This document shows positions 5,512 through 22,344 of a stretch of 64,000 nt of DNA, in pieces (the first letter of the stretch is position 1; each line of letters opens with the position of its first letter). Position numbers and translations under genes: made by a program. The stretch is taken from assembly GCF_009755275.1 (NCBI RefSeq), contig NZ_WQLA01000002.1, forward strand, positions 124,001-188,000. Reading direction: 5' to 3'. The notes under the pieces are model-generated. The model saw only the letters and a list, made by a program, of their open reading frames with translations, was not told where the DNA came from and did no database searches. This DNA is from Mucilaginibacter aquatilis (lineage in GTDB: Bacteria; Bacteroidota; Bacteroidia; Sphingobacteriales; Sphingobacteriaceae).

Positions 5512-5561
5512 CATTTTAAAGGCATACCAAATTATTCAGCAAATCACATAGTATATGCGAG

Positions 5562-7065: not shown

Positions 7066-7737
7066 TTATTCAGCTTTTCTGGCGTATTCTTCTTTGAGAA
7101 CAGTAACAAAATCTTTTTCATCACGGGGTAAAAAGAAACCCTTTATAGAATTAAAGTTTCTTATGCAGATCTGTATATGACTCTTCATCTGTATAGCGGA
7201 ACCAGGGAACGCCTCCCCGCCTTCAGTAAACACACCACGGGTTGAATCGAACAATTTTACATTGGTATATCCTCCGTTGGCAACGATCTCCTGCTGGTAA
7301 TCTGAAAAGATCTGTTCATGCATGAATTCAATTAGCGCACAGTCCAATTCCCGGATAAGTTTATCTTTATGCTCATCTTGCTTTACGTCCTTGTTCTTAG
7401 GGATAGGTTTCTTAAGTGCTTCAAAATTAGCTACCATCAACTTATAATAAACAGAAAGAAGACTTAAATACTTGCTGTCAAGAAAATCCAAGCAGTTGCC
7501 AAGTTGCAACACAGCGCCAACAACGGAGGCTTCTTTAATCTGGCCCCTCTGTTCTTTATCTTTGGCCCATAACCATGCACGTTCTAGGTTGTTTTCCCAA
7601 AAGTACATTCCATGTCCTAACCAGTCGTAAGGCTTTTCGCTTTTTTCAATCACAGCTTGATTAGCAACAAGCTTATCCGCAATTGATTTGTCACATCCAT
7701 GGAATCCAATAACTAAATTGGGGCGGATGTCATACAT
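7066..7737 (-). CDS. ADP-ribosyltransferase-like toxin candidate
   Basis: 223 aa. GFHGCDKSIADKL at residues 11-23 and LGHGMYFWENNLERAWLWA at 40-58 follow the H-G-(T/C) ... G-x-G-x-Y-F pattern of ADP-ribosyltransferase folds, where the His binds NAD and the Tyr/Phe strand forms the core. The C-terminal part holds GEAFPGSAIQMKSHIQICIRN, which could supply the last catalytic strand. No signal peptide. A 53-aa ORF ends 13 nt upstream on the same strand, the arrangement of a toxin-antitoxin pair. The ART assignment rests on motif reading and is not certain. Confidence 0.6.
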   Translation of the reverse strand: MYDIRPNLVIGFHGCDKSIADKLVANQAVIEKSEKPYDWLGHGMYFWENNLERAWLWAKDKEQRGQIKEASVVGAVLQLGNCLDFLDSKYLSLLSVYYKLMVANFEALKKPIPKNKDVKQDEHKDKLIRELDCALIEFMHEQIFSDYQQEIVANGGYTNVKLFDSTRGVFTEGGEAFPGSAIQMKSHIQICIRNFNSIKGFFLPRDEKDFVTVLKEEYARKAE

Positions 7738-7749
7738 AGGAGAGTATTA

Positions 7750-7911
7750 TTAGGCTATTTCCTCAAGTTCCTTATACGGTTCGGTATAAGCACCCTCATT
7801 ATCCATGATACCTGCATTGACAAAAGAGTTCAATGCTTCTTGTTCAGAAACACCTTTATCAAGTTTAGCATTAGCTAACTCAATAAGTAATTCAATATCT
7901 TTATCACTCAT
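7750..7911 (-). CDS. Small antitoxin-like protein, 53 aa
   Basis: ATG at 7911 to TAA at 7750-7752 gives a very acidic helical peptide (MSDKDIELLIELANAKLDKG... ending YKELEEIA). It immediately precedes the ART-like gene with a 12-nt gap, so the two are likely co-transcribed. Small size, acidity and position fit an antitoxin that neutralises the downstream enzyme. No DNA-binding motif is visible, so a direct inhibitor is more likely than a repressor. The role is inferred from context. Confidence 0.6.
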   Translation of the reverse strand: MSDKDIELLIELANAKLDKGVSEQEALNSFVNAGIMDNEGAYTEPYKELEEIA

Positions 7912-8160
7912 TGGATCTCTTTCTTTCCTATTAACACAAATCTAATCATTAGGTTCTATACATGCAACATCTTTGTCCTTACAATTAGCATCTTCTATCC
8001 TATGATCACTTGTATAAACGAAACAGCAAGACCTATTCTCTTATTTTAATTACCAGAAACACTTCCCTCATAATAAAGTACATTAAAGTTCCTTAGTTTA
8101 AACATCTGTAATATTAAAATGGATTTCTAAGGCTCGCCTATTAAGTTTGAATATTAGCCA

Positions 8161-8213
8161 TGTAACATAGTGAGGGTAAAAATTTGAAAAACCTGTAATG
8201 AAGTGAGGGTAAA
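8161..8213. repeat. Two 20-bp direct repeats in the 7912-8275 gap
   Basis: TGTAACATAGTGAGGGTAAA (8161-8180) and TGTAATGAAGTGAGGGTAAA (8194-8213) differ at three positions and start 33 bp apart, about three helical turns. Such spacing fits cooperative binding by an integrase, Xis or repressor. The rest of the 364-bp gap upstream of the toxin-antitoxin genes is AT-rich and holds no convincing gene. Confidence 0.55.
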
Positions 8214-8275
8214 TAATCCTAACTGAATACATGCTTTAGGGTTCGTCTTGCTAAATACTTTTAATGTTTGCATTT

Positions 8276-9043
8276 TCACCCAAAGTGAAGCAGTTTAGCC
8301 TGATTAAATTTCCGGTGCTCATTCTGCAACACATAGCCAAGCTGATTGGTGACCAGCTTAGTTTTACCAATTTTAAATTCCGGCGTTAAAGCGTGGTTAT
8401 GACCATAGATCCAGTATTCTGCACCGGACGATTCAATCAGCCTATCCATATCTGTGGCAAACGCTTCATTTAAAACGCTACCGCGGTATTTGCTTGGATA
8501 ATGCTGAAAGGTCGGTACATGATGTGAGACGACAATGCTTTTCTGATTGCTCAATAGACTACAGTTAAATGCTGCTTCGAGAAAAGATACAGCATCAGCA
8601 TGCATTTGATTGTAAAGCTCTATCGTAAGTCTTTTACCTTCAAGCCTGATCTGGTGAAAATCAGATAATCCCCGTTCAATATAAAAGGCATTTTCTTTTG
8701 AAACATTAGACCACAATGTCGTAAAGCAAAAACGGGTTCCATTCAATAAAACCACCTCGTTGTTAAGGAGACTGATATTCGCTTGGATCTTTTCATGAAA
8801 TGAGCCACGTTTGTTAGCGATATCAAATCCATAGTATTCATGGTTCCCAGGTACCCAATAAACATGGCTATAACTGTCCGAAAGAAGATCAAAGAAACTT
8901 TTGTAATGATCGATGTCACGTAGCGGAATTATATCGCCGGCCAAGATTAATATATCACCAGCTGGCTCGAGTGGGTTTTTCGCAATGAATGTTTTGTTCT
9001 CCGCAAACTCCAAATGGAGGTCGGATGCAAATTGTATTTTCAT
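8276..9043 (-). CDS. Calcineurin-like metallophosphoesterase
   Basis: 255 aa with all metal-site motifs of the family in order: SDLHLEF (residues 7-13), AGDIIPL, VPGNHEYYG, VSHHVPT and YGHNHAL. These coordinate two divalent metals for phosphoester hydrolysis. No signal peptide, so cytoplasmic. It starts 3 bp after the stop of the integrase at 9047-10267 and probably forms one transcript HTH, integrase, phosphoesterase. Such enzymes occur as cargo near phage/ICE integrases; the substrate cannot be deduced. Confidence 0.85.
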   Translation of the reverse strand: MKIQFASDLHLEFAENKTFIAKNPLEPAGDILILAGDIIPLRDIDHYKSFFDLLSDSYSHVYWVPGNHEYYGFDIANKRGSFHEKIQANISLLNNEVVLLNGTRFCFTTLWSNVSKENAFYIERGLSDFHQIRLEGKRLTIELYNQMHADAVSFLEAAFNCSLLSNQKSIVVSHHVPTFQHYPSKYRGSVLNEAFATDMDRLIESSGAEYWIYGHNHALTPEFKIGKTKLVTNQLGYVLQNEHRKFNQAKLLHFG

Positions 9044-9046
9044 AAA

Positions 9047-10267
9047 TTAATCTTCAGTGGTTAATACTAGCTCCTGACCGGCATGTTTTTTCTTTAATGA
9101 TTTCATATCTACACTTACCTTGGTATCAGTTACCCTTGCATAGATCTGAGTTGAGCGAATATTTTTATGACCAAGCATTTGTCCTACAGTTTCGATCGGT
9201 ACGCCGTTAGTTAGGGTTACCGTCGTTGCAAACGTATGTCTTGCACAATGAAAAGTCAACCACTTTGTCCATCCCATTGATCTTGCGATCTCTTTAAGGT
9301 AAAAATTTGCTCTTCCATTACTGATCTTAGGGAGCAAAAAATCCTCATCCAGATAACGGGGAAAATCTTTATAATGGTTAATGAGCTTTAATGCGGGTGC
9401 AAGCAAAGGCAGCCGTACCCGATTATTATTCTTCACGCGGTGTGTCTGAAGCCATATCCCTCCGTCATCTCCTTTCAAAATATCACCACTCTTAAGCTTT
9501 ATGATATCTGCGTAGGATAACCCTGTATAACAACTAAATAGAAAAAGATCACGTGTCAGATTCAACCGCTTTTTTACTTTTTTGATTGTGAGATCGCGAA
9601 GTTCCTCAGTTGTTAGGAACTCCCGGAAAACTTCCTCTTTCTTTGCCCGGTAGGCTACGAAGGGATTCCGCTTAGCCCAGCCGATCTCATTGGCAACCTT
9701 CATAATCGTTCTTAATTTCTTAACCATCTGCACTGCGGTATTAATTTTCACACCATAATCAGCTTTTAAATAATAATCGAAATCTCTCACCAATTGGAAG
9801 CCAATATCGTCTAATCTGATATCTTCCGATTGGGTTTTCAGCAATAGAAATTTTTTTAAGACCCTATAAGTCGACTTATACTTTTGTAAGGTCGCTGGTG
9901 TAAAACCTTTGCCTAAAAGCCCTGCGATCTGGTTGGTGTGGTAGTCCCAGGCATGAGACAACATTTTGGGTGGTTCAAGCTCTTCGCCAACCAACATTTT
10001 TTTAATGTGCATTGGCGAAAATGCCTTACCAGTTGCATAAAGCTCCTGCCTGCAAGAATGTGCTTTAGAATACAGCAGGTCGAGCCAGCTATTAATAGAT
10101 CGAGCGTATTCCTTTGTGCCTTTGATCCGCTTTGCTCCCCCGTCCCATTCACTTTCTGTGCAATGTCGGCCAGTGAACCACTCAGTACGCCGACCGCCCA
10201 TGGTGATACGCATGTAAATCGGGATATTTGGTTTGTCTTCCCCTGTTCTTTTCTTAAGATAAAACAA
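9047..10267 (-). CDS. Tyrosine recombinase/integrase, second module
   Basis: 406 aa from the first ATG, with arm-binding, core-binding and catalytic regions and motifs CYTGLSYADIIKL, HCARHTFATTV and MLGHKNIRSTQIYARV. Homology begins upstream of this ATG: codons for GVYTFGILFYLKKRTGEDK lie in frame, but no ATG, GTG or TTG exists between them and an in-frame TGA at 10317-10319, inside the 3' end of the HTH gene. An A9 tract (10314-10322) sits at this junction and would let a -1 shift fuse the HTH protein to the integrase (511 aa). ATT or GTT initiation is the alternative. It is closely related to the broken integrase at 48-49.4 kb. Confidence 0.9.
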   Translation of the reverse strand: MFYLKKRTGEDKPNIPIYMRITMGGRRTEWFTGRHCTESEWDGGAKRIKGTKEYARSINSWLDLLYSKAHSCRQELYATGKAFSPMHIKKMLVGEELEPPKMLSHAWDYHTNQIAGLLGKGFTPATLQKYKSTYRVLKKFLLLKTQSEDIRLDDIGFQLVRDFDYYLKADYGVKINTAVQMVKKLRTIMKVANEIGWAKRNPFVAYRAKKEEVFREFLTTEELRDLTIKKVKKRLNLTRDLFLFSCYTGLSYADIIKLKSGDILKGDDGGIWLQTHRVKNNNRVRLPLLAPALKLINHYKDFPRYLDEDFLLPKISNGRANFYLKEIARSMGWTKWLTFHCARHTFATTVTLTNGVPIETVGQMLGHKNIRSTQIYARVTDTKVSVDMKSLKKKHAGQELVLTTED

Positions 10268-10305
10268 GATTCCAAAGGTGTAGACTCCGGCTTTTTCAAC
10301 AATTG

Positions 10306-10581
10306 CTATGGGCTTTTTTTTTCAGCCTTAGCCAACATGGCATCGATATCTTCCGGCTTATAGTAGAATATTCCGCCTATTTTTGTATAACCAAGTTTTC
10401 CTTCAACACGAAGATTCTGAAGGGTATTATTCGATATATTCAGTATTTCCCTGACATCTTTTGTTTTTAGCCATTTCTTTTGATAGAGGTTTTTGTTTTC
10501 TAATATCGGTTTCAATAATTCAAAGAGTTCTGCTTTAAAATCCTGCAAATCCTTTTTTGTTAATAATTCATCCAATTGCAT
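10306..10581 (-). CDS. HTH (excisionase-like) DNA-binding protein
   Basis: 91 aa. N-terminal helical part, then KKWLKTKDVREILNISNNTLQNLRVEGKLGYTKIGGIFYYKPEDIDAML, a winged-helix MerR/excisionase-type domain (helix_turn_helix_17) typical of proteins encoded next to Bacteroidota integrases. It ends 39 nt upstream of the annotated integrase ATG, and its last codons (KAEKKSP) run through the A9 tract. It could act alone as Xis/regulator and, after frameshifting, as the N-terminal part of the integrase. Confidence 0.85.
   Translation of the reverse strand: MQLDELLTKKDLQDFKAELFELLKPILENKNLYQKKWLKTKDVREILNISNNTLQNLRVEGKLGYTKIGGIFYYKPEDIDAMLAKAEKKSP
10314..10322 (-). other. A9 slippery tract at the HTH/integrase junction
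   Basis: Nine consecutive A on the minus strand. In the HTH frame it reads GAA AAA AAA AGC, a suitable A-AAA-AAA slip site; a -1 shift continues directly into the integrase frame with no stop to the end (10581 to 9047, 1535 nt plus one re-read base = 512 codons). The same geometry recurs at 49364-49372. Confidence 0.5.
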
Positions 10582-10667
10582 TAATAAGTCTGTTTAGTAT
10601 CATTAATAATAACAAGCTGTGCGAGGCCGAATGGGCACTTCTTCGACAATACGCCCATTAGCTAACA

Positions 10668-11726
10668 CTATAGAAAATCATTTCGGTTCACTGATTTCAT
10701 CCATTCATCTTCAGCCATGATAATCGGGTCAAGCCAATTTGCTTTCTGTTTTGCCCAAGCCAGCCAGTCATTATCAGGCTCCCGAACCGTGGCGATATAC
10801 TCCCTGAGTAACTGAGCGAGCTTCCATTGCTTTGCGCGGCTAACGAGTTCCTTGAAATCTCCTAATTCCTTACGCTGCTCTGCATCCCATTCCGCTTGCG
10901 CCTTTCGCTGCCGTTCCCAGTTTTGCTGCCATACCTGTGCATTGGTCAAATAAGCCTCCTCCTGTTTAGCCGCCAGCTCCAATTTGGCTAACACTTTCGG
11001 GAGCTGATCTTCCAACAGCTGGGTTTTCAAGTCCTGCCATTCGGCTTTTAATCTGCTGTCCAGTCGAAAAACCAGTTTACCGTTTGGCTGCCATTCGTAG
11101 TCCTGGTAAGGCTTATCGAGCACCCTAACTCGTGTGGTGCGCTCTCGAAAATTTACCCGAAGCCTCAATTTGTGAATAACCACATAATTGCCATCGCTTT
11201 CAGCTTTAAAAATGTGCCCTCTTGCCCTGACACACTTGATCAGCGTATCCATAAATCGAAGTGCCCGGCCAACATTCGCGGTAGTTACCCGAATATCTAA
11301 TTGACCCTTTCCAGTTACAGCCATTCCTGGATGATTAATATCTGTAAGCTTAGCTAAGCTTTCTTTGGCGGCAACAATTAGTGGGTCGGGCCTTGTCAAT
11401 CTATCCGGTACTTTAAAAGGCAATTTTTCGCGACTGATCTGCTTAATGAGCAAGTCCAGTTCCGAAACTTGTTTAACAGACTTCTCCGCTGGGCGCTCTT
11501 CCAGTTCGGCATAGCCTTTTCCTTTATGCTTAACAGGCAACACCGGACGCTCCACCAGATGACCTGACCTGATCTTCGTCCAATCGCCACTTTTAGGGAA
11601 GGGAATATTTAGCCTGATGCAGAGCTTTCTGAATCCCACATCGGATATGGTATATTTCTGAGCGATATCCGTCATTGGCGATTCCCAAACCATTTGGTAC
11701 AGGTCTTCACGTGTTAACCTGATCAT
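10668..11726 (-). CDS. Conserved mobile-island hypothetical protein, 352 aa
   Basis: N-terminal block LTREDLYQMVWESPMTDIAQKYTISDVGFRKLCIRLNIPFPKSGDWTK is a recognisable HTH-like motif found in a large unnamed family of mobile-element proteins. The middle is alpha/beta and residues ~225-310 are strongly helical with coiled-coil character (KLELAAKQEEAYLTNAQVWQQNWERQRKAQ). No catalytic motif is visible. Its ATG overlaps the stop of the upstream tyrosine recombinase by 4 nt, so the two are translationally coupled and probably act together. Function unknown. Confidence 0.75.
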   Translation of the reverse strand: MIRLTREDLYQMVWESPMTDIAQKYTISDVGFRKLCIRLNIPFPKSGDWTKIRSGHLVERPVLPVKHKGKGYAELEERPAEKSVKQVSELDLLIKQISREKLPFKVPDRLTRPDPLIVAAKESLAKLTDINHPGMAVTGKGQLDIRVTTANVGRALRFMDTLIKCVRARGHIFKAESDGNYVVIHKLRLRVNFRERTTRVRVLDKPYQDYEWQPNGKLVFRLDSRLKAEWQDLKTQLLEDQLPKVLAKLELAAKQEEAYLTNAQVWQQNWERQRKAQAEWDAEQRKELGDFKELVSRAKQWKLAQLLREYIATVREPDNDWLAWAKQKANWLDPIIMAEDEWMKSVNRNDFL

Positions 11727-12622
11727 AATACCGGTGCTACTGATCTGAGTTCCTCCGTATTGAATTCGCCCAGGCTTCGCAGGTATTTGAGCGTGACCAG
11801 CACAGAAGAGTGCCCCATGATCTTCTGCACCATATAAACATCCTTCGTACGTCGAAAGACATCAATGGCTGCTGTATGCCGGAATGAGTATAGCGTTTGC
11901 TTGGGATAGATCAACCCATGGCTTAGCAGTTTCTTTTTTTCACGGGACCATTGCTTGGCGAAGTAGCTGTTATTAAATGGCTCTTTGTTCAGGCTAAAAA
12001 TGTTGTCATCCCTGCCAATAGTATTTAATACCGGCTCCAGTTCCTCCCTCACGTAATCAGGCACAAAAACGGTCCTTACCCGGCCACCCTTGTTTTCCGT
12101 ACCATCCAGGTGAATCTCCGTGTTATTCATTTTAAAGTGGCCTTTGGTTAATAAGCGTATTTCTTCATGCGGACGGAGCAAACAGCCGTAGGTCATCAGT
12201 GCACAGCGGTACAGGTTGGTATGGTTCACTTTCAAAAAATCAAGCACGGGTTGCAATTGCTCTCTTTCATACGCCAAATGAAGGGTGGCCTTAATGCGCC
12301 GTACCTCTGTTTTCCTGATCGTCATCAGGTTTTTATCGATCAACCTGCAAGCGGTATTAAAAAGCACACTCAGGTCACGTCTTTTGTTCATGTAATGCGT
12401 GGCCGAAGTATTGAATTGCTGAAGAAAGATCTCGATCTGCCCTGTGGTCAGGCTTTTGAGCGGTTTCTCCCGCCCTTCATCACCCAAAAAAGTCATGAAG
12501 TGGTTGTAAACATAGCGAAGGCTATCCTGATGTTGCCTACTAATACCGGAAGTGAGTTTTTTGTCAAGTGCCCGGCGGAATAGTGTGCCGGTAGATTTGT
12601 CGTTTATAGCTATATCATTCAT
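11723..12622 (-). CDS. Tyrosine recombinase of a different family, 299 aa
   Basis: Shorter than the other integrases and lacking their arm-binding N-terminus; it resembles XerC/D-like site-specific recombinases. Residues 1-105 form a core-binding domain. The catalytic domain has CLLRPHEEIRLL (first Arg), TLYSFRHTAAIDVF (His-x-x-Arg), MGHSSVLVTLKYLRSL (His and Tyr nucleophile). It overlaps the downstream 352-aa gene by 4 nt and lies on the same strand as the sigma/dead-Cas12f genes. It may mobilise this sub-region or resolve element multimers. Confidence 0.88.
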   Translation of the reverse strand: MNDIAINDKSTGTLFRRALDKKLTSGISRQHQDSLRYVYNHFMTFLGDEGREKPLKSLTTGQIEIFLQQFNTSATHYMNKRRDLSVLFNTACRLIDKNLMTIRKTEVRRIKATLHLAYEREQLQPVLDFLKVNHTNLYRCALMTYGCLLRPHEEIRLLTKGHFKMNNTEIHLDGTENKGGRVRTVFVPDYVREELEPVLNTIGRDDNIFSLNKEPFNNSYFAKQWSREKKKLLSHGLIYPKQTLYSFRHTAAIDVFRRTKDVYMVQKIMGHSSVLVTLKYLRSLGEFNTEELRSVAPVL

Positions 12623-12697
12623 TGGGCATAGATCGCCTTTTGGTGATTAAAAAGTTAAAGGAAGAAGTTGTCATGTATAGTTGGTTCCAAACATGTA

Positions 12698-12997
12698 TTA
12701 AGTACGGTAATATTTCTCTAGTTCCAGGGAGGCGAAAATTGCGGCATAAACCATATTATTTAAAGGCCGCTCCTTTTCATCGTCCAGAAACTGCCGGTTT
12801 TGTGTTTGGGCTAATGCTTTTCCAATGAACGGCATATGGCTCATCTTGATCACATCAATGTGGTCTTCGGGACGAAGCTTACGCATTTTTGCCGATGGGT
12901 TCCCAATGTTATAATCGTTAATACCCTCAAATATTTGACTAACCATCTCATCGCTGAGATTAAGGGCTGAAAAAAGTTCCTTAATATTCATAACCAT
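12698..12997 (-). CDS. Hypothetical protein, 99 aa
   Basis: Small helical protein (NIKELFSALNLSDEMVSQIFEGINDYNIGNPSAKMRKLRPEDH...), no membrane segment or known motif. Either Met1 (12997) or Met3 (12991) may be the start. It begins about 24 nt after the putative guide segment of the structured RNA and is codirectional with the sigma and Cas12f-like genes. Association with that system is possible but unproven. Confidence 0.55.
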   Translation of the reverse strand: MVMNIKELFSALNLSDEMVSQIFEGINDYNIGNPSAKMRKLRPEDHIDVIKMSHMPFIGKALAQTQNRQFLDDEKERPLNNMVYAAIFASLELEKYYRT

Positions 12998-13020
12998 GTG
13001 AAACTACAAAACGCTTTGCT

Positions 13021-13160
13021 CAAGTAATCGTAATGCCCAAACAATATTAGGTAGGATCACTCCGGCGGAACTGTATACATTTACCATAGCCGAAGCTCAT
13101 GGTGCGTTTAGTGAGACAATCATTGCTCACCCTACGGCTGTACAGGCAGCCTCACTATTT
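13021..13160 (-). ncRNA. Putative guide RNA: structured scaffold (13160-13051) and guide (13050-~13021)
   Basis: Directly downstream of the dead-Cas12f-like gene on its strand. The minus-strand RNA has: stem GGCTG/CAGCC (13151-13147 with 13140-13136); hairpin GTGAGCAAT.../ATTG-T-CTCAC (13130-13111); hairpin ACCAT-g-AGC-TTCG-GCT-ATGGT (13103-13083) with a UUCG tetraloop; a short TCC-GCC-GGA hairpin; and a long-range 7-bp pairing GTAGGGT (13135-13129) with ATCCTAC (13057-13051), with one G-U and partly exclusive with the second hairpin. An outer AGTGAG/CTCACT helix is an alternative. TnpB/Cas12f scaffolds have a pseudoknot just before the guide, so the guide would start at 13050. The hairpins are seen; the role is inference. 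Confidence 0.6.
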
Positions 13161-13210
13161 ATTAACTGAACTCTTATCTTACCTATATTCAATTTGCTAA
13201 TTTTCAATTT

Positions 13211-14287
13211 TTATTCAACGATCAGGATAATACCTGCCGCAGCTGCCTTATAGGCAATTTTATCTTTTAAACTTTGGTAACCCCAGTTGCGGATCAGTAG
13301 GGCATCTTCCTTTGCCGTAGCCTCCTTATTTTCCTGACCAACCAATAAAAGGGTTCCTGCACCGTTTCGGACACAAATATCGATCAGCCGTTTGCTGTAT
13401 TTATGGGTCTGCTGCTCGCAGTACCGGTGTTCCAAACCTTTAAAGCGTTCTAAATTCTTATGCTGCCGTCTCATACCGTTTTCGCTGCGGTTATAGTTGA
13501 CGCTTTGTTGCGCCCGTTTATAAGCTCCTTGTATAGCCAACCTCCTGTAAAAGAACTCTTCTTTGTTTCCGATAGCAAAACTTTGGTTACCGATCTTTAC
13601 TGTGATTGGTTGTTGAGGAGATAGTGAGGCTTCGGCAATGACGGCCTCATCTAAGGGATGAGCTGCCGCTTCTGGTTTATAAGAAGCATATAAATATATC
13701 CTGGTCTTGTCCAGCTTCAAAAAGCACCCGGATATTTTAGTCTTTCCCCTGAATACATCGCGTAAGAAATCACGCTTGTCGTAACCTTTGCCTATCCACG
13801 TGATGAACGGCACCCCGAACAAGTTAAACCGGAAATTTTTGCCGTCCTCGGCCATGTCGAACCGTTTTATGCTGACGGTGCTGAAAGGCAAATTGATATC
13901 ACGTTTAAAGTTAGTCAATGACCGCTCACCTGTATAGTAGAGTTTTCGCTCCTGCTGGTAGGTGACGTGTAACCGGCCATTCAATGTATTTAATATATCC
14001 GTAGGGATCTCACCCATAAACCGGTCGGACAATAACCTGTATGTGGAGTTCATTTGTGAGCTCGTTAATATCCCGTCCTCATCAACGTTAATACTGCAAA
14101 GTTTGGCACGTGTACCTTCATTAATATACAATACTTCCTTTATTTGTTCCTGCAAAAAAAGGTGCGTATAGATGTAGTTCGCGCCTTTGAATGCGATTTT
14201 TTGCCAGCTATATAGCTTTTCCTGGTACGCCTTAACCTCCGCTTCATTATTGCGGTCAATGAATATTTGGATCTTTTGCGTATACAT
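13211..14287 (-). CDS. TnpB/Cas12f-like RNA-guided DNA-binding protein, nuclease-dead
   Basis: 358 aa. N-terminal ~225 residues resemble the WED/REC part of compact Cas12f/TnpB proteins. The C-terminal third aligns with the RuvC region: ITVKIGNQSFAIG (228-240) sits where RuvC-I normally has GIDxG, so the Asp is absent; AGTLLLVGQEN (310-320) replaces the RuvC-II VExL strand, with no Glu at the catalytic place; NWGYQSLKDKIAYKAAAAG (334-352) is the conserved helix after it. The protein then stops, lacking the TS-CxxCG zinc ribbon and the RuvC-III Asp. Nuclease activity is therefore not expected. Its ATG overlaps the sigma-factor stop by one nucleotide (TGATG), and a structured RNA follows. Nuclease-dead Cas12f homologues paired with ECF sigma factors have been reported for RNA-guided transcription in Bacteroidota; this pair matches that architecture. 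Confidence 0.8.
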   Translation of the reverse strand: MYTQKIQIFIDRNNEAEVKAYQEKLYSWQKIAFKGANYIYTHLFLQEQIKEVLYINEGTRAKLCSINVDEDGILTSSQMNSTYRLLSDRFMGEIPTDILNTLNGRLHVTYQQERKLYYTGERSLTNFKRDINLPFSTVSIKRFDMAEDGKNFRFNLFGVPFITWIGKGYDKRDFLRDVFRGKTKISGCFLKLDKTRIYLYASYKPEAAAHPLDEAVIAEASLSPQQPITVKIGNQSFAIGNKEEFFYRRLAIQGAYKRAQQSVNYNRSENGMRRQHKNLERFKGLEHRYCEQQTHKYSKRLIDICVRNGAGTLLLVGQENKEATAKEDALLIRNWGYQSLKDKIAYKAAAAGIILIVE

Positions 14288-15117
14288 CAGGCAGCTTTCT
14301 CCTTTCTCATCCTTTGATGGGCCTGAACAAATGAACGTTGTACCTCAGCCTGCCGGATATTCATCAGTTCAGCAATCTCTTGAAAGCTATAGCTTAATTC
14401 ATATCGGTAGCGTAGAATATTAGCCTGTTCCTCGGTTAGCTCTCCGCTAATTACCAGTTGTTTTTTAGCGATCTGGTTGCCGGAAAGATTAGCGCCATTG
14501 ACCAATATGCTTTTGAGTAGGGCAATGGTCTTCTCAATTTGTTTGGCGGCCACATAACAAGAAACACCGCCTAAGTGCCAGGCAACACGCTCATAGTCCA
14601 AGCTGTAGCGTAATAACAGGCCAACAACCTGCTGTTGTTTTTCTGGTAGATCGGGCAAAACGGCATATAATTGTGTGCGTTGCGCTTCCAACTCATTGTA
14701 GGTTTCGTCATCCGATGCAGGAAGATTGTCTGATGGATAGGTTGTGCTAACATCAGGCAGTAAGTATTCAGCCGCATGTTCTATGCCATCGATCTGAATA
14801 AGGCCACGGTAAAACTTCGTGGATGATTGCGCGTAGTAATCATAGGCGGCTTGCTTAATCTGCCTATATAGAAAATCTGTTAGATGTGATAGGCTATTGA
14901 TACTTTCCCTGCGTTGCCACAGGCGCAAAAAAGCTTCCTGTGCGACACAGGTAGCTGCGATGTCCTGTTTCACCATCCGCAATGCCATGATATAGTACCT
15001 GGAATATAATTCCCGGTAAAAAAAGGCAAAACCGGTTTCCTGCGCTTCTTTAAACATAGTAAAGTGTTTATGAAACGCTTGATTATATTTGACCGGTTTT
15101 TGTTGTATTGGTGGCAT
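14287..15117 (-). CDS. ECF-like sigma factor with two sigma-4-like regions, coupled to the dead-Cas12f gene
   Basis: 276 aa, longer than a typical ECF sigma (~170-200 aa). Residues ~25-95 match sigma region 2 (FFYRELYSRYYIMALRMV, VAQEAFLRLWQRRESI, DFLYRQIKQAAYDYYAQ). Residues ~150-203 (LPDLPEKQQQVVGLLLRYSLDYERVAWHLG) form a degenerate sigma-4-like unit, and ~227-271 (LTEEQANILRYRYELSYSFQEIAELMNI...VQRSFVQAHQRMRK) a second, more canonical one. No anti-sigma gene is adjacent. The stop overlaps the start of the Cas12f-like gene, so both are made together. It likely recruits core RNA polymerase to sites chosen by the dead-Cas12f/guide complex. The upstream region carries the GTTGT operator array shared with the XRE gene. 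Confidence 0.82.
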   Translation of the reverse strand: MPPIQQKPVKYNQAFHKHFTMFKEAQETGFAFFYRELYSRYYIMALRMVKQDIAATCVAQEAFLRLWQRRESINSLSHLTDFLYRQIKQAAYDYYAQSSTKFYRGLIQIDGIEHAAEYLLPDVSTTYPSDNLPASDDETYNELEAQRTQLYAVLPDLPEKQQQVVGLLLRYSLDYERVAWHLGGVSCYVAAKQIEKTIALLKSILVNGANLSGNQIAKKQLVISGELTEEQANILRYRYELSYSFQEIAELMNIRQAEVQRSFVQAHQRMRKEKAA

Positions 15118-15165
15118 TGCAATCGCAAATTACCTCGGGTACACCGTGTAGCGAACCACAAACGG

Positions 15166-15213
15166 GTTGTAAAACACAACATTAGGGTTGTTTAATACAA
15201 CCAAGCAGGTTGT
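15166..15213. promoter_or_regulatory. Operator array between XRE and sigma genes (GTTGT-N5-ACAAC)
   Basis: Two palindromes, GTTGT-AAAAC-ACAAC (15166-15180) and GTTGT-TTAAT-ACAAC (15187-15201), plus a third half-site GTTGT (15209-15213), start 21-22 bp apart, i.e. on one face of the helix. They fill the 131-bp divergent intergenic region. A -7-like TATATTTG at 15237-15244 lies just before the XRE ATG. The likely ligand is the XRE protein, repressing itself and the sigma/dead-Cas12f operon. Confidence 0.65.
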
Positions 15214-15248
15214 ATGGAACGCAGCGAATTTTTAATTATATTTGATTT

Positions 15249-15608
15249 ATGGCAGAGACGATACATATTGGCAGAAAAATTAGCCGCATTCGGGAGTTAA
15301 GAGGAATGAAACAGGATGCGTTAGCTGCTCAATTAGGAATCAGCCAACAGGCAATTTCTAAGATTGAACAGAGCGAAAATGTTGAAGACGAATCTTTAAT
15401 AAAAATTGCGACTGCCTTAGGACTTAGCCCAGAAGCTATAAGAAACTTTAGTGAGGAAGCTGTATTCACTAATATAAGCAATACGTTTAACGATACAAGC
15501 TATTTAATCAATTATCAATTTAACCCAATTGACAAAATAGTTGAACTTTATGAACGCCTCCTCAAAAGCGAGCAAGAAAAAATCGAGCTACTGAAAGGCA
15601 AGCAATAA
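15249..15608 (+). CDS. XRE-family transcriptional regulator
   Basis: 119 aa. HTH_3 domain at residues 8-62 (KISRIRELRGMKQDALAAQLGISQQAISKIEQSENVEDESLIKIATALGL), then a C-terminal helix (IDKIVELYERLLKSEQEKIELLKG) likely used for dimerisation. Only about 4 nt separate a -7-like box from the ATG, so the transcript may be leaderless. Divergent from the sigma factor across the GTTGT operator array; the best guess is an autorepressor that also gates the sigma/dead-Cas12f operon. Confidence 0.88.
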   Translation: MAETIHIGRKISRIRELRGMKQDALAAQLGISQQAISKIEQSENVEDESLIKIATALGLSPEAIRNFSEEAVFTNISNTFNDTSYLINYQFNPIDKIVELYERLLKSEQEKIELLKGKQ

Positions 15609-15719
15609 GCCCAAGGGTTGTATACCTAAGAGATGGTCAAATTATTTTTTCGCGGTTTTCCGCATGGTATCACTGAAATAGAGCGGATACATGTCTCCGT
15701 GCTATAGAACTATAGCCAA

Positions 15720-16838
15720 ATGGATCATAAGACTTTCGCCAATATCAGCCGGATCATTGAGCGTGATAGCAAATCAACAACCTACAAACTCGCATTGCTT
15801 AGAGGGACTATTGATATTATTAATGAAAACTCACCATTCATTAAGACCTATGATGGCCGCGCCCATATTCCATTAGGCTTGCTGATCGAGAAATGGTTGC
15901 TGTACTATTATCCTATTGTTGAATCTGAAACGATAATACCGCAAATAAATGGCTCTACCGATATTGCGTTTGGAAAGAATTTAAAAGCGCTTACGGATGC
16001 ATATAAAGGGAATGGCGGATTATCGGCGTTTTATACTAACCTAATCGGGAGCAAATTCCAAATAGCTGAGCAGCTTTTTTTAATAACGCTAACGCAACAA
16101 ATCGCTCAAACGATTACCAAAATGCCGATGCGTTATATTGGTAAGTCAGTTACCGGGCAAGAATATGGCCTTTATGAATACCAACCCACTAAAGGCAAAA
16201 AAGCTTCAATAACGTTTGACATCAATTACCTTATTGACAATTTTGGAAGTTTTTCGATTCCCATTGAGTATTTTGACGCTTTCAGGGTATTGGGTAGTTT
16301 CATCGGAGGTCAGGATGCAATCCTTTTTAAATGGGCAGAGTTTTCTGTGCAGGCATCAGGTAAAAATCTCTCCATTCCACAAGTTCTGGGCGAAGTTCTT
16401 AAAAGCCCTATCACTGAAAGGGAAGTGTCTGCCTCCAAAGCTTTTTATAAAAGTCTATTAGAAAGCAGAACAACAGTATATTGTGTTTGGAGCGGTAAGA
16501 AATTAACACGTTATGATATAGATCACATCATTCCTTTTACTGTTTGGAAAAATAATGATCTTTGGAACCTTCTGCCTGTTCATCCGAGTTTGAATAATCA
16601 GAAACGTGATAAGATTCCCTCAATAAATCTTATTGAAAATCAACAATCGCTAATAAAAGATTATTGGTCGATGTTGGATCATGCAAAACCGAACCGGTTT
16701 CAAACGGAATTGCGTGTAGCTCTATCCGGCGATAGTAAAGACCCTAATTGGCAGGAACATGCTATCTCCCAACTAAAGAACAGCTGCAATTACCTGATCA
16801 ATACGCGAGGCTTCGATGAGTGGATGCCAGCTGTTTGA
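15720..16838 (+). CDS. HNH endonuclease-domain protein
   Basis: 372 aa. The C-terminal third holds a clear HNH motif from about residue 255: CVWSGKKLTRYDIDHIIPF...WKNNDLWNLLPVHPSLNNQKRDKIP, with the metal/catalytic DH pair and the downstream N and K residues. Residues 1-240 are alpha-helical and unrecognised and may mediate substrate choice. It follows the XRE gene by 111 bp on the same strand. This kind of long HNH protein is common in defence islands, but no known system is completed here. Nuclease activity is likely; target unknown. Confidence 0.8.
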   Translation: MDHKTFANISRIIERDSKSTTYKLALLRGTIDIINENSPFIKTYDGRAHIPLGLLIEKWLLYYYPIVESETIIPQINGSTDIAFGKNLKALTDAYKGNGGLSAFYTNLIGSKFQIAEQLFLITLTQQIAQTITKMPMRYIGKSVTGQEYGLYEYQPTKGKKASITFDINYLIDNFGSFSIPIEYFDAFRVLGSFIGGQDAILFKWAEFSVQASGKNLSIPQVLGEVLKSPITEREVSASKAFYKSLLESRTTVYCVWSGKKLTRYDIDHIIPFTVWKNNDLWNLLPVHPSLNNQKRDKIPSINLIENQQSLIKDYWSMLDHAKPNRFQTELRVALSGDSKDPNWQEHAISQLKNSCNYLINTRGFDEWMPAV

Positions 16839-17132
16839 TTGATTTTTTATCCCTGCGCATACGTAGGCATTGCACTGCGTAAACAGCTACTCAACACTAA
16901 GCAGGGACGCTGTCAAGGGCGAGGCGATAGCCGAGCTTGTTTACCCTTGACGGCTTTCCTGCGGTGTTACCTTTGTGTCAGCGGTGCAGTGCCTTTTTTC
17001 ATCCGGCGAAAGCAGGTATGTTACGAGCGAAGCGAGTTTCATTCCTGCAAGGGCGGCGAGGCTGATGGCGGGATGCACCCTGCGCAACGCGCGTGATGCA
17101 TCTCACCATTGGCCGCAGCTGCATTCCTACTA
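16839..17132. repeat. GC-rich intergenic with long inverted repeat (no gene)
   Basis: Convergent gap between the HNH and relaxase genes, clearly richer in G+C than its neighbours. GTCAAGGG (16912-16919) is inverted at 16944-16951 with an inner GGC-GATA-GCC hairpin (16923-16932). Short ORFs here are GC-frame artefacts without domain content. It could be a terminator-like or transfer-related structure. Confidence 0.45.
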
Positions 17133-18077
17133 CTATCTACTCGGTCCGCCACCATAGCCGTAACCCTTCTTTTTCTTTCGTTTTTTAGGCTCCGGTTCAG
17201 GTGCGATATAAATGGGCTGTAATAGTTCCCCTAACAAACTACCCGAAGAAATCGGGCTGAATAGTTGACCCTGACGCGTGGCCACATCTTGCTTATTCGC
17301 TAACCGCGCATCCTGCTTTTCCTCATAGCTGCCGTTCTTCAAAGCATTTGCATAATTGAATGATTCACTTACCGCCCGGTCATACCCAAACAGCTTATCA
17401 AATACTTGTTCCGTTACCTGCTTAAAAGCAACCCGGTCGAATTGCCCGACCTTCTTACTATGCTCAGCATTGCTGCCTTTGGAGTTATTGAGCGGACTTA
17501 ACTTGATACTGTTACTGGCATCCTTCCGGCTGACAATGACCTGCACATGCATTTGTTCGCCCGGTTTGGGTTCTCCCTTCTTGGCTTTGCCTTTCCGCAC
17601 TTCGAGGTCTTTATAGGTATAATACCGGTTATTCTCCAGCTTGCCGAAATAAACCAGATCCTGGTTGCCATTTATATTATCCCGTTTAAAATTCTTTGCA
17701 TATTTGTGCATAACCTCGTTTGCATAGGCCTTGAGTTGTTCCCTTGCACCTTGCTCGCCATACAAGGCTTTCAGATGTAATATCTCTTTTTCACTGGGGC
17801 TGATATTGACCAAAAAGAATTTGGCATCATCCCTGGAAAGCTTAGCCACATTCTGATCGATACCCTGCCTTACCTCATAAGGCCGGATATCTTTACGCTC
17901 GTGGTTGAACCAATACTCCGGCTGCTGTAACTGTAGTAGCAAGGTTCCTTTAAAGTCATTGGTTAGCTTGTTCATGTTTGGCTGAACCAAACGGTTCTCC
18001 TTTTCCAGGTAGGCCACCAATTGACCGCTGCTTCCTTTATTATTGCCGGTCTCGCTTTTTGTGATATTGATGTGCAT
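17133..18077 (-). CDS. Relaxase/mobilization protein (MobB/DUF5712-like)
   Basis: 314 aa beginning MHINITKSETGNNKGSSGQLVAYLEKENR, the N-terminal signature of the Bacteroidota mobilization relaxase family (DUF5712-like). It contains HVQVIVSRKD (a histidine-bearing strand, around residues 178-187, consistent with the metal-binding histidine motif of relaxases) and a basic Lys/Arg tail (PEPKKRKKKKGYGYGGG). It would nick oriT and pilot the strand during transfer using a conjugation machine supplied in trans. It lies 50 bp downstream of the MobA-like gene. Confidence 0.82.
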   Translation of the reverse strand: MHINITKSETGNNKGSSGQLVAYLEKENRLVQPNMNKLTNDFKGTLLLQLQQPEYWFNHERKDIRPYEVRQGIDQNVAKLSRDDAKFFLVNISPSEKEILHLKALYGEQGAREQLKAYANEVMHKYAKNFKRDNINGNQDLVYFGKLENNRYYTYKDLEVRKGKAKKGEPKPGEQMHVQVIVSRKDASNSIKLSPLNNSKGSNAEHSKKVGQFDRVAFKQVTEQVFDKLFGYDRAVSESFNYANALKNGSYEEKQDARLANKQDVATRQGQLFSPISSGSLLGELLQPIYIAPEPEPKKRKKKKGYGYGGGPSR

Positions 18078-18127
18078 TACTCATTAACCTTTCTGTTTTC
18101 TACTAAATCTAATTTTATGACCTGCCA

Positions 18128-18697
18128 TCACAGGTTACGAACCTGCTCCTGTACATGTGCTACCAAAGCATCCTTTTCCGCTTTGCTGGTCATCATATTC
18201 ATTTGCTCCCTGTGTTCGATGTAGTACCCCAGCAGCTTAAGGAACTTAGCTTTTAGCGTTGCCTTATCCTGTTCGGCTTCAACAAGCCTTTTCACCAACC
18301 TAAAGACCTCCGCCAAATATTCACTTTGCTCTTTGAGAATATCGGCTTGTGTCTGGTTATGACCGATCAGGTACTCATTTAGAAACTTCACCATCTCTTG
18401 CAGGCTACGGAGCACCAATTCAGTATCTTTTCTTGTTGGGATCAACAAATCGTTCTCCTGTGTCCGTATAAAAGCTATGATATTATCGGTCTTCCGGTTA
18501 ATGGCATTCTTTAACAGTTCATCGTTTAAGTCCTTTGGATCTTTCTTAGTCTTATAGAAATAGTCTACCATACACACCACGAACTGCTGCTTACTCATCC
18601 CTCTTTTTAAAGCCAGCTTCGTCAGTTTCTCATCCGTATCTACCGAAAAGCGTACACTCTTGATATTCTCATCTTTAACGGTGTGATCCATTACCAT
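18128..18697 (-). CDS. Mobilization accessory protein (MobA/BtgA-like)
   Basis: 189 aa. Residues ~14-45 (KSVRFSVDTDEKLTKLALKRGMSKQQFVVCMVDYF) form a ribbon-helix-helix-like DNA-binding start, followed by long helices including QTQADILKEQSEYLAEVFRLVKRLVEAEQDKATLKAKFLKLL. This matches the BfmA/BtgA mobilization family of Bacteroidota. It would bind oriT and recruit the relaxase encoded just downstream. The 379-bp region upstream of its start is full of dyads and repeats (see oriT-like entry). Confidence 0.82.
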   Translation of the reverse strand: MVMDHTVKDENIKSVRFSVDTDEKLTKLALKRGMSKQQFVVCMVDYFYKTKKDPKDLNDELLKNAINRKTDNIIAFIRTQENDLLIPTRKDTELVLRSLQEMVKFLNEYLIGHNQTQADILKEQSEYLAEVFRLVKRLVEAEQDKATLKAKFLKLLGYYIEHREQMNMMTSKAEKDALVAHVQEQVRNL

Positions 18698-19076
18698 TCC
18701 TCCGTTTCCTTAGTCCAGTATACCGCCAGGTATACGTAAATCCTCATTTTTGATATTAGGCGGGGGGCAAAGTATACCGCAGGTATACGTAAAACAGCCT
18801 TAGCCCCGCAGGGCAAGCGGAAAAAGTCGGGTGCGCCCGACTTCCGCTTGCTCCCCCCGCTTTCGCGGAGCGACACTTTGCCGCTTGGCTTTTGATGCTG
18901 CTTTAAGCAGCATAAGTAGCTATGCATCTGCATAGCTATCTAACTCAATAGCGATATAGCCATACATCACTATCTAATACCTACCTATGTAACTATCCCT
19001 CTGTATAACTATGCAGCAGCATAGCTATATACCTACGCAGCTATCTACCGGTATACCTATGTAACTGAACCGATAG
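18698..19076. other. oriT-like region: dyads, long hairpin and TAGCTAT repeats
   Basis: Two direct repeats each holding a GTATACC/GGTATAC dyad and ending CGTAAA (18717-18740; 18771-18793). A long hairpin: GCAAGCGG (18813-18820) with CCGCTTGC (18844-18851), and AAGTCGGG-TGCG-CCCGACTT inside (18824-18843), with a 3-nt bulge. Then about 170 bp (18912-19080) packed with TAGCTAT/TAACTAT/CTATGTAACTAT variants. Lying directly upstream of the mob genes, this is the best candidate for the origin of transfer and Mob-binding iterons. Confidence 0.6.
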
Positions 19077-19394
19077 CTATGCCATCCACCCGGCAGGCCA
19101 GTAAACCTGGCTACCTTTTTTAGGATGATAAGAAGGCTGGTAGCGGATATAGCCGTACTCATCCAGCTCTTTGATACACTTGTGATAAGTAGCAATGGAA
19201 GCAATCCGGCTAAACGCCATCAGCGTCTTTCTTGTGACAGAGAACGGGCTTTTGAAACCGTTGCGCTGCCAGTGGACGAACAGACCGCTGAAGAGGCCGA
19301 CATGAGTCGCGTTCAGCCGTTCGTCGGTGCTCATACGTTTGAGTAATTTGCTGTAACCGGCAAGCTCGCTGGCGGCAATACCATTGGTACTCAT
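19077..19394 (-). CDS. Winged-helix-like element protein, 105 aa
   Basis: Contains VTRKTLMAFSRIASIATYHKCIKELDEYGYIRYQPSYHPKKGSQVYW, which reads as a winged helix with a basic wing, similar to small replication/regulation proteins encoded next to excisionases in Bacteroidota conjugative elements. The start overlaps the stop of the upstream HTH gene by 4 nt. It probably acts in excision or maintenance control. No catalytic motif. Confidence 0.7.
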   Translation of the reverse strand: MSTNGIAASELAGYSKLLKRMSTDERLNATHVGLFSGLFVHWQRNGFKSPFSVTRKTLMAFSRIASIATYHKCIKELDEYGYIRYQPSYHPKKGSQVYWPAGWMA

Positions 19395-19660
19395 TGCATG
19401 CCTCCTTCCAGTAGCTTGTTAATATCTTCCAGCTTGTAATACATGATGCTGCCGATACGGGTATAACTCAGTGTCCCGTTAATGCGCAGGTTCTGTAAGG
19501 TACCGGGTGATATCTTGAGCAGCTTTCGTACCTCGTTACTTTTGAGCCATTTTTTGGACTGGCCCTGTCCGTTTAGTTGAACGAGCTTTTCAATTGCTGT
19601 TAACAGCTCGCTTTTAAATTCCTTTAAGTCCTCTTTGGTGATCAATTCACTTGCTTGCAC
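19391..19660 (-). CDS. HTH excisionase-like protein, 89 aa
   Basis: Same family as the HTH proteins at 10.3 and 49.4 kb: LITKEDLKEFKSELL...KKWLKSNEVRKLLKISPGTLQNLRINGTLSYTRIGSIMYYKLEDINKLL. Unlike those two, it ends before any A-tract and is followed by the 105-aa winged-helix gene, not by an integrase. Likely the Xis/regulator of the mobilization module. Confidence 0.85.
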   Translation of the reverse strand: MQASELITKEDLKEFKSELLTAIEKLVQLNGQGQSKKWLKSNEVRKLLKISPGTLQNLRINGTLSYTRIGSIMYYKLEDINKLLEGGMQ

Positions 19661-19750
19661 AATCGCCTCCTTCGTTAAATCGTTTAATTGTTACTTGTCC
19701 CATCCTTGCGGGATACGGAAACAAAGGTGTGGGCGAAGCGCTATTTGTGA

Positions 19751-19774
19751 TTACCATAGGCTAAGCTATGGTAA
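19751..19774. repeat. Perfect 9-bp dyad upstream of the HTH gene
   Basis: TTACCATAG (19751-19759) and CTATGGTAA (19766-19774) separated by GCTAAG. It lies in the 212-bp gap between the 253-aa gene and the HTH gene, about 90 bp upstream of the HTH start. Candidate operator or terminator of the gene at 19873-20634; there is no T-run, so an operator is favoured. Confidence 0.45.
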
Positions 19775-19872
19775 CGGCAAGCAAAGCATAGTGCTAAAAA
19801 GAGGGCGCTGAATGGTATAGCGGCAATTAGTGATGTTTGCCTACAAAAGAAAAACACAAATGAAGCCCCGGC

Positions 19873-20634
19873 TTAAATCGCCCTGCTTTTTGCGGGAATG
19901 ATGTTGAAGTGTTGGTTTTCGAAGGGAATAGCAGATGAGCGGCCGCTTGGTTTATTGGGGTCACGTGGATAGTAGCGCCGTACCCGGTCGAACTTGATAG
20001 GTTCCCCGTCTTCCTGAAAGTACCGGCAGATCAGTTTCGCCCAGGTGATGGGCATCTGAGAAAATACCAATTCCTTGTCGTCGACCTTCAGTTCTGCTAT
20101 TTTCTTAAACAAGTCGACTACCGTTAGAAAATGGCCACTGGCAATGTTGATAGGAAAATCGGTTTCCCATTTCTCAGCCTCTTTGCGTTCGTCCCTAAGA
20201 CGTTGATTCTCTTCTTTAAGTATTTTAATTTGCCCTTCCTTGTCTGCAATAATTTCAGCCTGGGTACGGCCGAGGTTCCATTCGTCGATGCTTTGCAGGT
20301 ATTCGGTAAACCTGTTAAGATGAAACTTGTCCTTAAAATGGCGTGCATGGCCGGAGGCATACCTGTCCTTATGTCTTAATTGTGCAATGGCATCCTGTAT
20401 GACCTCCCAAACATATCTGAAAAACTCCTGTTCGGTTGCGTTATCATACTTCGATAGAAAGAACTGGAGGTGGTATTTATACAAGGTATCAAACTCTTGC
20501 TCATCGTTACGATATAACCGGTTAAGAAAGTGGTTATCCTCGACTTTTTTGTTCCAAAAGAAAGGTCGGCCGATATCATGGGTGTCTTTGTTAAAATCTA
20601 AAGGCGCGCGGTGTTTGAAGTATTGTTCTCGCAT
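19873..20634 (-). CDS. Hypothetical element protein with coiled coil, 253 aa
   Basis: N-terminal half helical and aromatic-rich (FDTLYKYHLQFFLSKYDNATEQEFFRYVWEVIQDAIAQL). Residues ~128-160 form a coiled coil (EIIADKEGQIKILKEENQRLRDERKEAEKWE). The C-terminal portion (FSQMPITWAKLICRYFQEDGEPIKFDRVRRYYPRDP) is conserved-looking and resembles proteins near Mob modules of other Bacteroidota elements, possibly RteC-like regulators. No function can be stated. Confidence 0.65.
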   Translation of the reverse strand: MREQYFKHRAPLDFNKDTHDIGRPFFWNKKVEDNHFLNRLYRNDEQEFDTLYKYHLQFFLSKYDNATEQEFFRYVWEVIQDAIAQLRHKDRYASGHARHFKDKFHLNRFTEYLQSIDEWNLGRTQAEIIADKEGQIKILKEENQRLRDERKEAEKWETDFPINIASGHFLTVVDLFKKIAELKVDDKELVFSQMPITWAKLICRYFQEDGEPIKFDRVRRYYPRDPNKPSGRSSAIPFENQHFNIIPAKSRAI

Positions 20635-22300: not shown

Positions 22301-22344
22301 ATTTAAATATTTTTTAAAGGTAATCTAGGAATTAAACCGGTGTT

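What the first reader, a model, noticed from the sequence alone, without database searches (positions are those of the whole stretch)
13211..15117. Sigma factor translationally coupled to a nuclease-dead TnpB/Cas12f-like protein
Seen: the two ORFs share one nucleotide (TGATG). The second aligns with the RuvC part of compact Cas12f/TnpB but lacks the RuvC-I Asp, the RuvC-II Glu, the zinc ribbon and RuvC-III. Known: nuclease-dead Cas12f homologues genetically linked to ECF sigma factors have been reported (I recall recent work on RNA-guided transcription in Bacteroidota; not checked here). Inference: the protein and guide RNA would place this sigma and RNA polymerase at a chosen locus, independent of promoter motifs. 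The pair sits in a mobile island with an XRE regulator, so it could reprogramme host or element genes after transfer.
Basis: partly seen in the sequence, partly recalled or inferred. Interest (0 to 1): 0.95.

Follow-up and report, generated by a model that had tools for sequence, protein, structure and literature searches.

The report
RNA-guided sigma factor on mobile island
A gene pair on a mobile DNA island in a Mucilaginibacter-like bacterium appears to make a sigma factor steered to chosen genes by a dead Cas12f and a small guide RNA; this kind of system already has solved structures, so it is a new example, not a new kind.

Summary
Confirmed. The two ORFs lie exactly as stated and share one base. 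The downstream protein (358 aa) matches, over residues 2-357, the PDB chain 'Nuclease-deactivated Cas12f' (9n9c, E=1.5e-93). The upstream sigma matches the RpoE chain of entry 9n9q (E=2.2e-26), which also holds that dCas12f. The pair is a new member of the dCas12f-sigmaE kind. A loop-to-3'-end pseudoknot covaries among relatives. Sigma lies just upstream in 46 of 46 distinct loci examined; a scaffold is found in 42 of 46. In three relatives the guide has a perfect G-flanked intergenic site upstream of a thioredoxin-like (TlpA) gene. The sister species' guide has one perfect intergenic site, 62 nt before a TlpA-like operon in another genus. The window's guide has no perfect target in its own genome; the best candidate is an imperfect site 123 nt upstream of a TlpA-SusC pair, and the evidence for it is weak. 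The unit lies in an island at a tRNA-Asp gene. A divergent XRE gene with two palindromic operators probably controls it. RNA-guided transcription here is inferred from homology, not tested.

The parts
14287..15117 (-). ECF-type sigma factor, 276 aa, homologous to the RpoE chain of the dCas12f-sigma PDB entry 9n9q
   Evidence: Pfam sigma r2 (34-97) and r4 (226-272); PDB 9n9q_C E=2.2e-26 over 41-271
13211..14287 (-). nuclease-dead Cas12f homologue (dCas12f), 358 aa
   Evidence: PDB 9n9c_A E=1.5e-93 over residues 2-357, RuvC-I D replaced by S, RuvC-II E in a gap, C-terminal end absent; Foldseek top hit 9n9c on a low-confidence model
13071..13153 (-). guide-RNA scaffold: hairpin GGCTGC-CTGTA-CAGCC, GGGTGAG...CTCAC stem, 3' end TACAG pairing with loop CTGTA (pseudoknot). 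The 5' end of the RNA is not determined.
   Evidence: conserved core in 42 of 46 distinct loci; pseudoknot test
13056..13070 (-). conserved guide segment TTCCGCCGGAGTGAT (one junction nt plus 14-nt guide; how far the RNA runs beyond 13056 is not known)
   Evidence: 14 of 15 nt identical to the guide of the 83% relative L107/L007, sequence diverges straight after
15118..15248 (.). divergent promoter region with two palindromes GTTGTnnnnnACAAC at 15166-15180 and 15187-15201 (candidate XRE operators)
   Evidence: only two in 64 kb; same place in the relatives L107, L108, L128; 0 of 27 XRE loci L180-L206
15249..15608 (+). XRE/Cro-type regulator, divergent, probable switch of the sigma-dCas12f operon
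   Evidence: HTH_3 E=6.6e-13; 81%, 71%, 70% identical genes divergent upstream of sigma in L107, L108, L128
12698..12997 (-). 99-aa protein of unknown function after the guide RNA, conserved in some relatives
   Evidence: 38% in L107, 28% in L128/L006 downstream of dcas12f; no hit in the other loci; no family
5431..49979 (.). island between tRNA-Asp 3' end and direct repeats of it (18 bp of 5431-5448 at 49962; 20 bp of 5439-5458 at 47104); which repeat is the true end is open
   Evidence: tyrosine recombinase genes at 5707-6924, 9047-10267, 11723-12622, 48091-48738

Best explanation
This is a dCas12f-sigmaE RNA-guided transcription unit carried by an integrative island. Shown: an operon of sigma and nuclease-dead Cas12f, a conserved guide-RNA scaffold with a 3' guide just downstream, a divergent XRE gene, and palindromes in the shared promoter region. 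Inferred: the XRE protein holds the operon off or autoregulates it. When expressed, dCas12f binds the guide RNA (scaffold closed by a loop/3'-end pseudoknot) and opens an R-loop at a site with a 5' G followed by about 14 nt of guide match. The sigma, bound to dCas12f, brings RNA polymerase there and starts transcription a fixed distance downstream (recalled from work on homologues). The likely target class is an uptake operon with a thioredoxin-like (TlpA) gene and a SusC-type transporter. Confidence in the kind of system is about 0.9; in the target class about 0.5; in the particular own-genome site about 0.3.
For: Match to the solved dCas12f over residues 2-357 and to the RpoE chain of one of its entries; Foldseek best hits are dCas12f-gRNA and dCas12f-gRNA-DNA structures (weak model). 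Sigma homologue just upstream, same strand, in 46 of 46 distinct loci. Scaffold core on the sense strand in 42 of 46 loci: 75 cores against 1 on the other strand and 0 in three block-shuffled sets (the core was derived from these loci). Pseudoknot complement present in 47 of 84 scaffold copies, against a mean of 9.3 in shuffles and 19.4 after swapping loops, 0 of 2000 reaching 47 in either control. Guides in G197, G212 and G254 each have one genomic site G+14 nt perfect, with no frame of 60 or more codons over it and a TlpA-like gene 0.9-1.4 kb downstream on the same strand. G254's second guide matches 18 of 18 nt after a G upstream of the same gene, with the scaffold register (CTGTA/TACAG) of the window. 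G + 14 nt of the sister guide occurs twice in 399 family genomes: one hit in a coding frame, the other intergenic, 62 nt before a thioredoxin-like ORF followed by a SusC-like start.
Against: No perfect target of the window's guide in its own genome: G + first 9 guide nt does not occur, and the 2-mismatch sites that were fetched (14 of 21) all lie within ORFs of 60 or more codons. The sister guide has no perfect target in its own genome G111 either. The G + 14 nt pattern has 0 exact matches in 149 genus genomes. The own-genome candidate has 4 mismatches in 14 nt, equalled by two other places in the same 3.5 kb. With plain scoring one of 52 guides beats the window's in the 143-bp gap, and three beat it and one ties over the whole 1.5 kb upstream. 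G221, which holds the perfect site, is not among the dCas12f-positive genomes. 37 of 84 scaffold copies lack an exact pseudoknot partner, and 4 of 46 loci lack a detected scaffold. The AlphaFold model is poor (pLDDT 48). No expression or binding data.
Confidence: 0.9

Rival explanations
1. dCas12f acts alone as an RNA-guided repressor (like the TnpB-derived TldR), and the sigma factor works at its own promoters.
For: The protein is a dead Cas12f with a guide RNA; TldR repressors are described (PMC13418256: abstract in a listing, and passages).
Against: The closest solved relative shares an entry with an RpoE chain homologous to this sigma; sigma is just upstream in 46 of 46 loci. The mapped perfect sites of relatives lie upstream of genes on the same strand, not over start codons.
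Confidence: 0.06
2. The unit in this genome is a relic: guide or target has decayed and it regulates nothing now.
For: No perfect target in its own genome; only an imperfect candidate.
Against: Both ORFs are intact. The guide is 14 of 15 nt conserved to a relative whose dCas12f is 83% and sigma 63% identical, while the sequence just after the guide is not conserved. XRE palindromes are present.
Confidence: 0.2
3. The guide points at DNA that is not resident, such as another mobile element or phage, and the unit responds to its arrival.
For: No perfect resident target in 149 genus genomes; island setting with Lamassu, ZorAB-like and E1-E2-like genes.
Against: The single perfect intergenic site found lies before a TlpA-like operon, not a phage gene. 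In IMG/VR 108 stretches match against 38 for the reversed pattern, but the 80 of 108 that could be read all lie in open frames, which fits composition rather than promoters.
Confidence: 0.1

Closest known systems
dCas12f-sigmaE RNA-guided transcription systems (PDB 9n9c, 9n9m, 9n9q; the paper 'Exapted CRISPR-Cas12f homologs drive RNA-guided transcription' is recalled, not held in the library)
   Same: dead Cas12f of about the same length (358 against 365 aa), homologous RpoE-type sigma next to it, gRNA next to it, G-flanked sites upstream of TlpA/SusC-type genes in relatives
   Different: 42-45% identical to the solved dCas12f; lies on a tRNA-Asp island with a divergent XRE gene and palindromic operators; own-genome target imperfect. 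I cannot say whether XRE control is already described, as the main paper could not be read.
TldR (TnpB-like nuclease-dead repressors)
   Same: exapted, nuclease-dead, RNA-guided regulator, prophage-borne in the case read (PMC13418256, abstract in a listing, and passages)
   Different: TldR derives from TnpB and represses; this one is Cas12f-type with a sigma partner
Active Cas12f nucleases (e.g. 9nzo, 8hr5)
   Same: Cas12f sequence relationship and guide RNA use
   Different: RuvC-I Asp, RuvC-II Glu and the RuvC-III/zinc-ribbon end are missing here

Membership tests
dCas12f-sigmaE RNA-guided transcription | nuclease-dead Cas12f homologue of about 360 aa | tested here: met
   9n9c_A E=1.5e-93 over residues 2-357; catalytic residues absent
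dCas12f-sigmaE RNA-guided transcription | adjacent ECF/RpoE-type sigma homologous to the partner in the solved complex | tested here: met
   9n9q_C E=2.2e-26; just upstream in 46 of 46 distinct loci
dCas12f-sigmaE RNA-guided transcription | guide RNA encoded next to dcas12f | tested here: met
   conserved scaffold and guide next to the gene; transcription not tested
dCas12f-sigmaE RNA-guided transcription | target flanked by a 5' G (defining feature recalled) | tested here: inconclusive
   met in 3 of the 5 genomes searched with pattern TGGCGGACTTCATGT (G218 has the same guide and no such site, G173 has a slightly different guide) and for G254's second guide; no perfect target for the window guide
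dCas12f-sigmaE RNA-guided transcription | targets upstream of SusC-type or related operons (recalled) | tested here: inconclusive
   G221: TlpA-like ORF with SusC-like start by eye; TlpA-like genes in G197, G212, G254; own genome only an imperfect site before a TlpA-like gene and a TonB-receptor Plug/CarboxypepD_reg (SusC-type) gene
dCas12f-sigmaE RNA-guided transcription | guided recruitment of RNA polymerase and a start site set by the R-loop | not testable with these tools
   needs ChIP-seq, RNA-seq or in vitro transcription
TldR repressors | dead TnpB repressing a target without a sigma partner | tested here: not met
   closest to dCas12f, with a sigma partner

The most novel reading that the evidence does not exclude
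A mobile island carries an XRE-switched RNA-guided sigma factor that, after transfer, turns on a resident TlpA-SusC uptake operon through a guide that pairs imperfectly (mostly wobble-compatible differences) with its target. The guide stays conserved while target operons drift, so one guide can serve diverged hosts.
Probability: 0.2. Interest if true: 0.65.

Novelty: new member of a known kind. Interest (0 to 1): 0.42.

Why it matters
It puts a natural counterpart of CRISPR activation on a transferable island with an obvious candidate on/off regulator, and gives scaffold, guide register, operator and candidate targets that can be tested directly. It also shows how widespread the kind is: 93 of 399 genomes drawn from the family, the window's own included, have a relative at E<=1e-30.

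Tried and rejected
Literature: six searches (of one search's 58 papers I saw the 20 listed) did not show the dCas12f-sigmaE paper in the held library. Look-ups by DOI and of PMC11702177 were not held. What is said about that work is recalled; only PDB names and titles come from calls. Of PMC13418256 I saw the abstract's start in listings and passages.

Rfam: nothing convincing over 12600-15700 (two chance-level matches). Folding the single strand 13000-13210 gave no unusual stability (z -0.74), so the RNA rests on comparison, not on energy.

Targets: the 21-mer guide with 3 mismatches, the 15-mer with 2 mismatches and G + 9 nt found no resident target. The genus-wide search at 1 mismatch listed 69 sites, two of them the gRNAs themselves, against about 71 for the reversed control by my hand count. 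Near the 48 loci only sites with 2 mismatches were found. Phage contigs gave no usable signal. Of the four TlpA-like loci of G000 only L358 scored, and of the five in G111 none convincingly.

The count of wobble-compatible mismatches (7 of 10) is not used as proof: the sites were picked with a score that favours wobble. With that score the window's guide is first of 24 in the 143-bp gap of L358, 0 of 500 in each shuffle control, but 3 of 27 other guides equal or beat it over 1.5 kb. With plain scoring 2 of 1000 shuffled gaps and 4 of 1000 shuffled guides reach it, and one of 52 guides beats it.

XRE is not specific to dCas12f: relatives occur in 82 of 149 genus genomes.

Structure prediction with five sequences was poor; its Foldseek hits are used only as agreement with the sequence match.

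In G252, G072, G267 and G306 guide-like sites upstream of TlpA genes lie in a structured element without an Rfam match. I could not decide whether these are true targets.

Full report
Observation. Searches confirm two minus-strand ORFs, 14287-15117 (276 aa) and 13211-14287 (358 aa), sharing base 14287 (TGATG). The first is a sigma factor with regions 2 and 4. The second has no Pfam match at E<=1 and only sub-threshold TnpB matches in NCBIfam. Against the PDB it matches 9n9c_A, 'Nuclease-deactivated Cas12f', over residues 2-357 at E=1.5e-93. The sigma matches 9n9q_C, 'RpoE', at E=2.2e-26; 9n9q is one of the four entries that hold the dCas12f chain. The alignment to the Cas12f chain 9nzo_B shows S in place of the RuvC-I Asp, the RuvC-II Glu in a gap, and an end before RuvC-III (motif names recalled). 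In the five aligned sequences, the window's included, the RuvC-I position is S or T. A Foldseek search with a poor model (pLDDT 48) also ranks the dCas12f-gRNA and dCas12f-gRNA-DNA structures first.

Linkage. A relative at E<=1e-30 is present in 93 of 399 genomes drawn from the family, the own genome included. The one scan of viral contigs with this protein confirmed none. I examined 48 loci including the window. Two repeat others (L122 = L003, L128 = L006, shared sequence), so 46 are distinct. All 46 have a sigma homologue (tblastn E<=1e-3) within about 1.1 kb upstream on the same strand. Contig length identifies genome G376 as Mucilaginibacter galii, so the window's genus is taken to be Mucilaginibacter (inference).

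Guide RNA. Downstream of dcas12f a scaffold GAGGCTGCTTGTACAGCCGTAGGGTGAG recurs. At up to 8 mismatches with a hairpin it is on the sense strand in 42 of 46 loci: 75 copies, against 1 on the other strand and 0 in three block-shuffled sets. In some relatives it lies upstream of sigma. The window copy starts at 13153. Its hairpin loop CTGTA pairs with TACAG just before the guide. Relatives use TTGTA/TACAA, TTGCA/TGCAA or CTGCG/CGCAG. Of 84 scaffold copies, 47 hold the complement of their own loop, against a mean of 9.3 in shuffled sequence and 19.4 with swapped loops; none of 2000 of either control reached 47. The other 37 of 84 showed no exact partner. The sister locus L107 (dCas12f 83%, sigma 63% identical) shares 14 of 15 nt of the guide, and the sequence diverges right after it. 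This suggests selection on about 14 nt of guide.

Targeting rule from relatives. The pattern TGGCGGACTTCATGT was searched in five genomes. In three (G197, G212, G254) there is one further site differing only in the first base, which is G, so the match is a G plus 14 nt. G218 has the same guide but no such site (the best place upstream of its TlpA-like gene has 3 differences in 17 nt); G173 has a slightly different guide and gave none. The three perfect sites have no frame of 60 or more codons over them and lie about 0.9-1.4 kb upstream of TlpA-like genes on the same strand. G254 has a second guide, with the scaffold type of the window, that matches 18 of 18 nt after a G upstream of the same gene, also outside any such frame. 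The GGCTCGCTT[AG]TCGTG pattern gave no site with a G and at most one mismatch to the intact rest except one in G252, 0.5 kb upstream of a TlpA-like gene; the guides of G252 and G376 differ from this pattern by one inserted T.

Targets of the window's guide. In the own genome the 15-mer occurs only in the gRNA itself; the 2-mismatch sites that were fetched, 14 of 21, lie within ORFs of 60 or more codons. G + first 9 guide nt is absent from G000 and occurs twice in G111, both in frames. The sister guide has no perfect target in G111. G+TCCGCCGGA[GT]TGAT has no exact match in 149 genus genomes and two in 399 family genomes. One is inside a reading frame. The other, in G221, is intergenic, 62 nt before the ATG of a 433-aa thioredoxin-like protein that is followed by a SusC-like start (the 47-aa fragment is labelled by eye, Pfam gave no hit). 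G221 itself is not among the dCas12f-positive genomes. The best homologue of that gene in the own genome (E=1.1e-27) is a thioredoxin-like gene followed by one with TonB-receptor Plug and CarboxypepD_reg domains, the SusC type. Its 143-bp upstream gap holds G|CCCGCCCGAATGAC, 123 nt before the ATG, outside any frame of 60 codons. It differs from the guide at 4 of 14 positions, and two other places in the same 3.5 kb do as well. With plain scoring, gaps allowed, 2 of 1000 shuffled gaps and 4 of 1000 shuffled guides reach the observed score; one of 52 guides beats it in the gap, and three beat it and one ties over 1.5 kb. I regard it as a candidate only.

Regulation. The XRE gene at 15249-15608 diverges from the operon. 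Genes 70-81% identical are divergent upstream of sigma in three other distinct loci, and weaker relatives (25-39%) in seven more, 11 of 46 in all counting the window. The region between holds two palindromes GTTGTnnnnnACAAC (15166-15180 and 15187-15201), the only two in 64 kb. The motif recurs at the same place in the three loci with the close XRE and in none of the 27 other XRE loci fetched (L180-L206). XRE relatives are common in the genus (82 of 149 genomes), so the protein was probably recruited. That it represses the operon is inference.

Island. A tRNA-Asp gene lies at 5380-5454. Parts of its 3' end are repeated at 47104 (20 bp) and 49962 (18 bp). Tyrosine recombinase genes lie at 5707-6924, 9047-10267, 11723-12622 and 48091-48738. 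The unit lies between these repeats. The island also carries defence-type genes.

Verdict. What is added here is the guide RNA with its covarying pseudoknot, the guide register, target classes in relatives, the XRE operators and the island ends. Activity of this copy and its target remain untested.

Noticed in passing
41909-46492 (-): Complete-looking Lamassu-type set LmuA, LmuB, LmuC (PADLOC E 1.1e-140, 2.3e-172, 1.6e-73) on the same island.
   Followed up: partly
26344-40320 (+): Cluster with a weakly ZorA-like (MotA) protein, a ZorB-like (MotB) protein, a 1187-aa protein and an E1-E2-like protein (ORFs); looks like a composite defence-type operon not resolved by PADLOC.
   Followed up: no
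15720-16838 (+): 372-aa protein with an HNH_4 domain weakly like the Cas9 HNH, next to the XRE gene.
   Followed up: no
10668-11726 (-): 352-aa protein without any family match, directly after a tyrosine recombinase gene with overlapping ends.
   Followed up: no
L387, L392, L398, L411 about 380-825 nt upstream of TlpA-like genes: Structured, similar element (fold -73 to -84 kcal/mol per 215-220 nt, no shuffle control run) containing the guide-like site (GGYGTGGGCTC in three, GGCGTGGCGCCC in L411); no Rfam match. Possible unknown leader RNA or DNA hairpin element.
   Followed up: partly
L002 8001-9071; L006 near 9005: The dcas12f frame in Chitinophaga eiseniae has an in-frame stop, and the M. 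lacusdianchii copy ends early at an in-frame stop.
   Followed up: no
G000 and G111 genomes: The 10-mer GTCCGCCGGA (G plus guide seed) occurs 0 and 2 times against 9 and 21 for the reversed control: avoidance or mere composition, not resolved.
   Followed up: no
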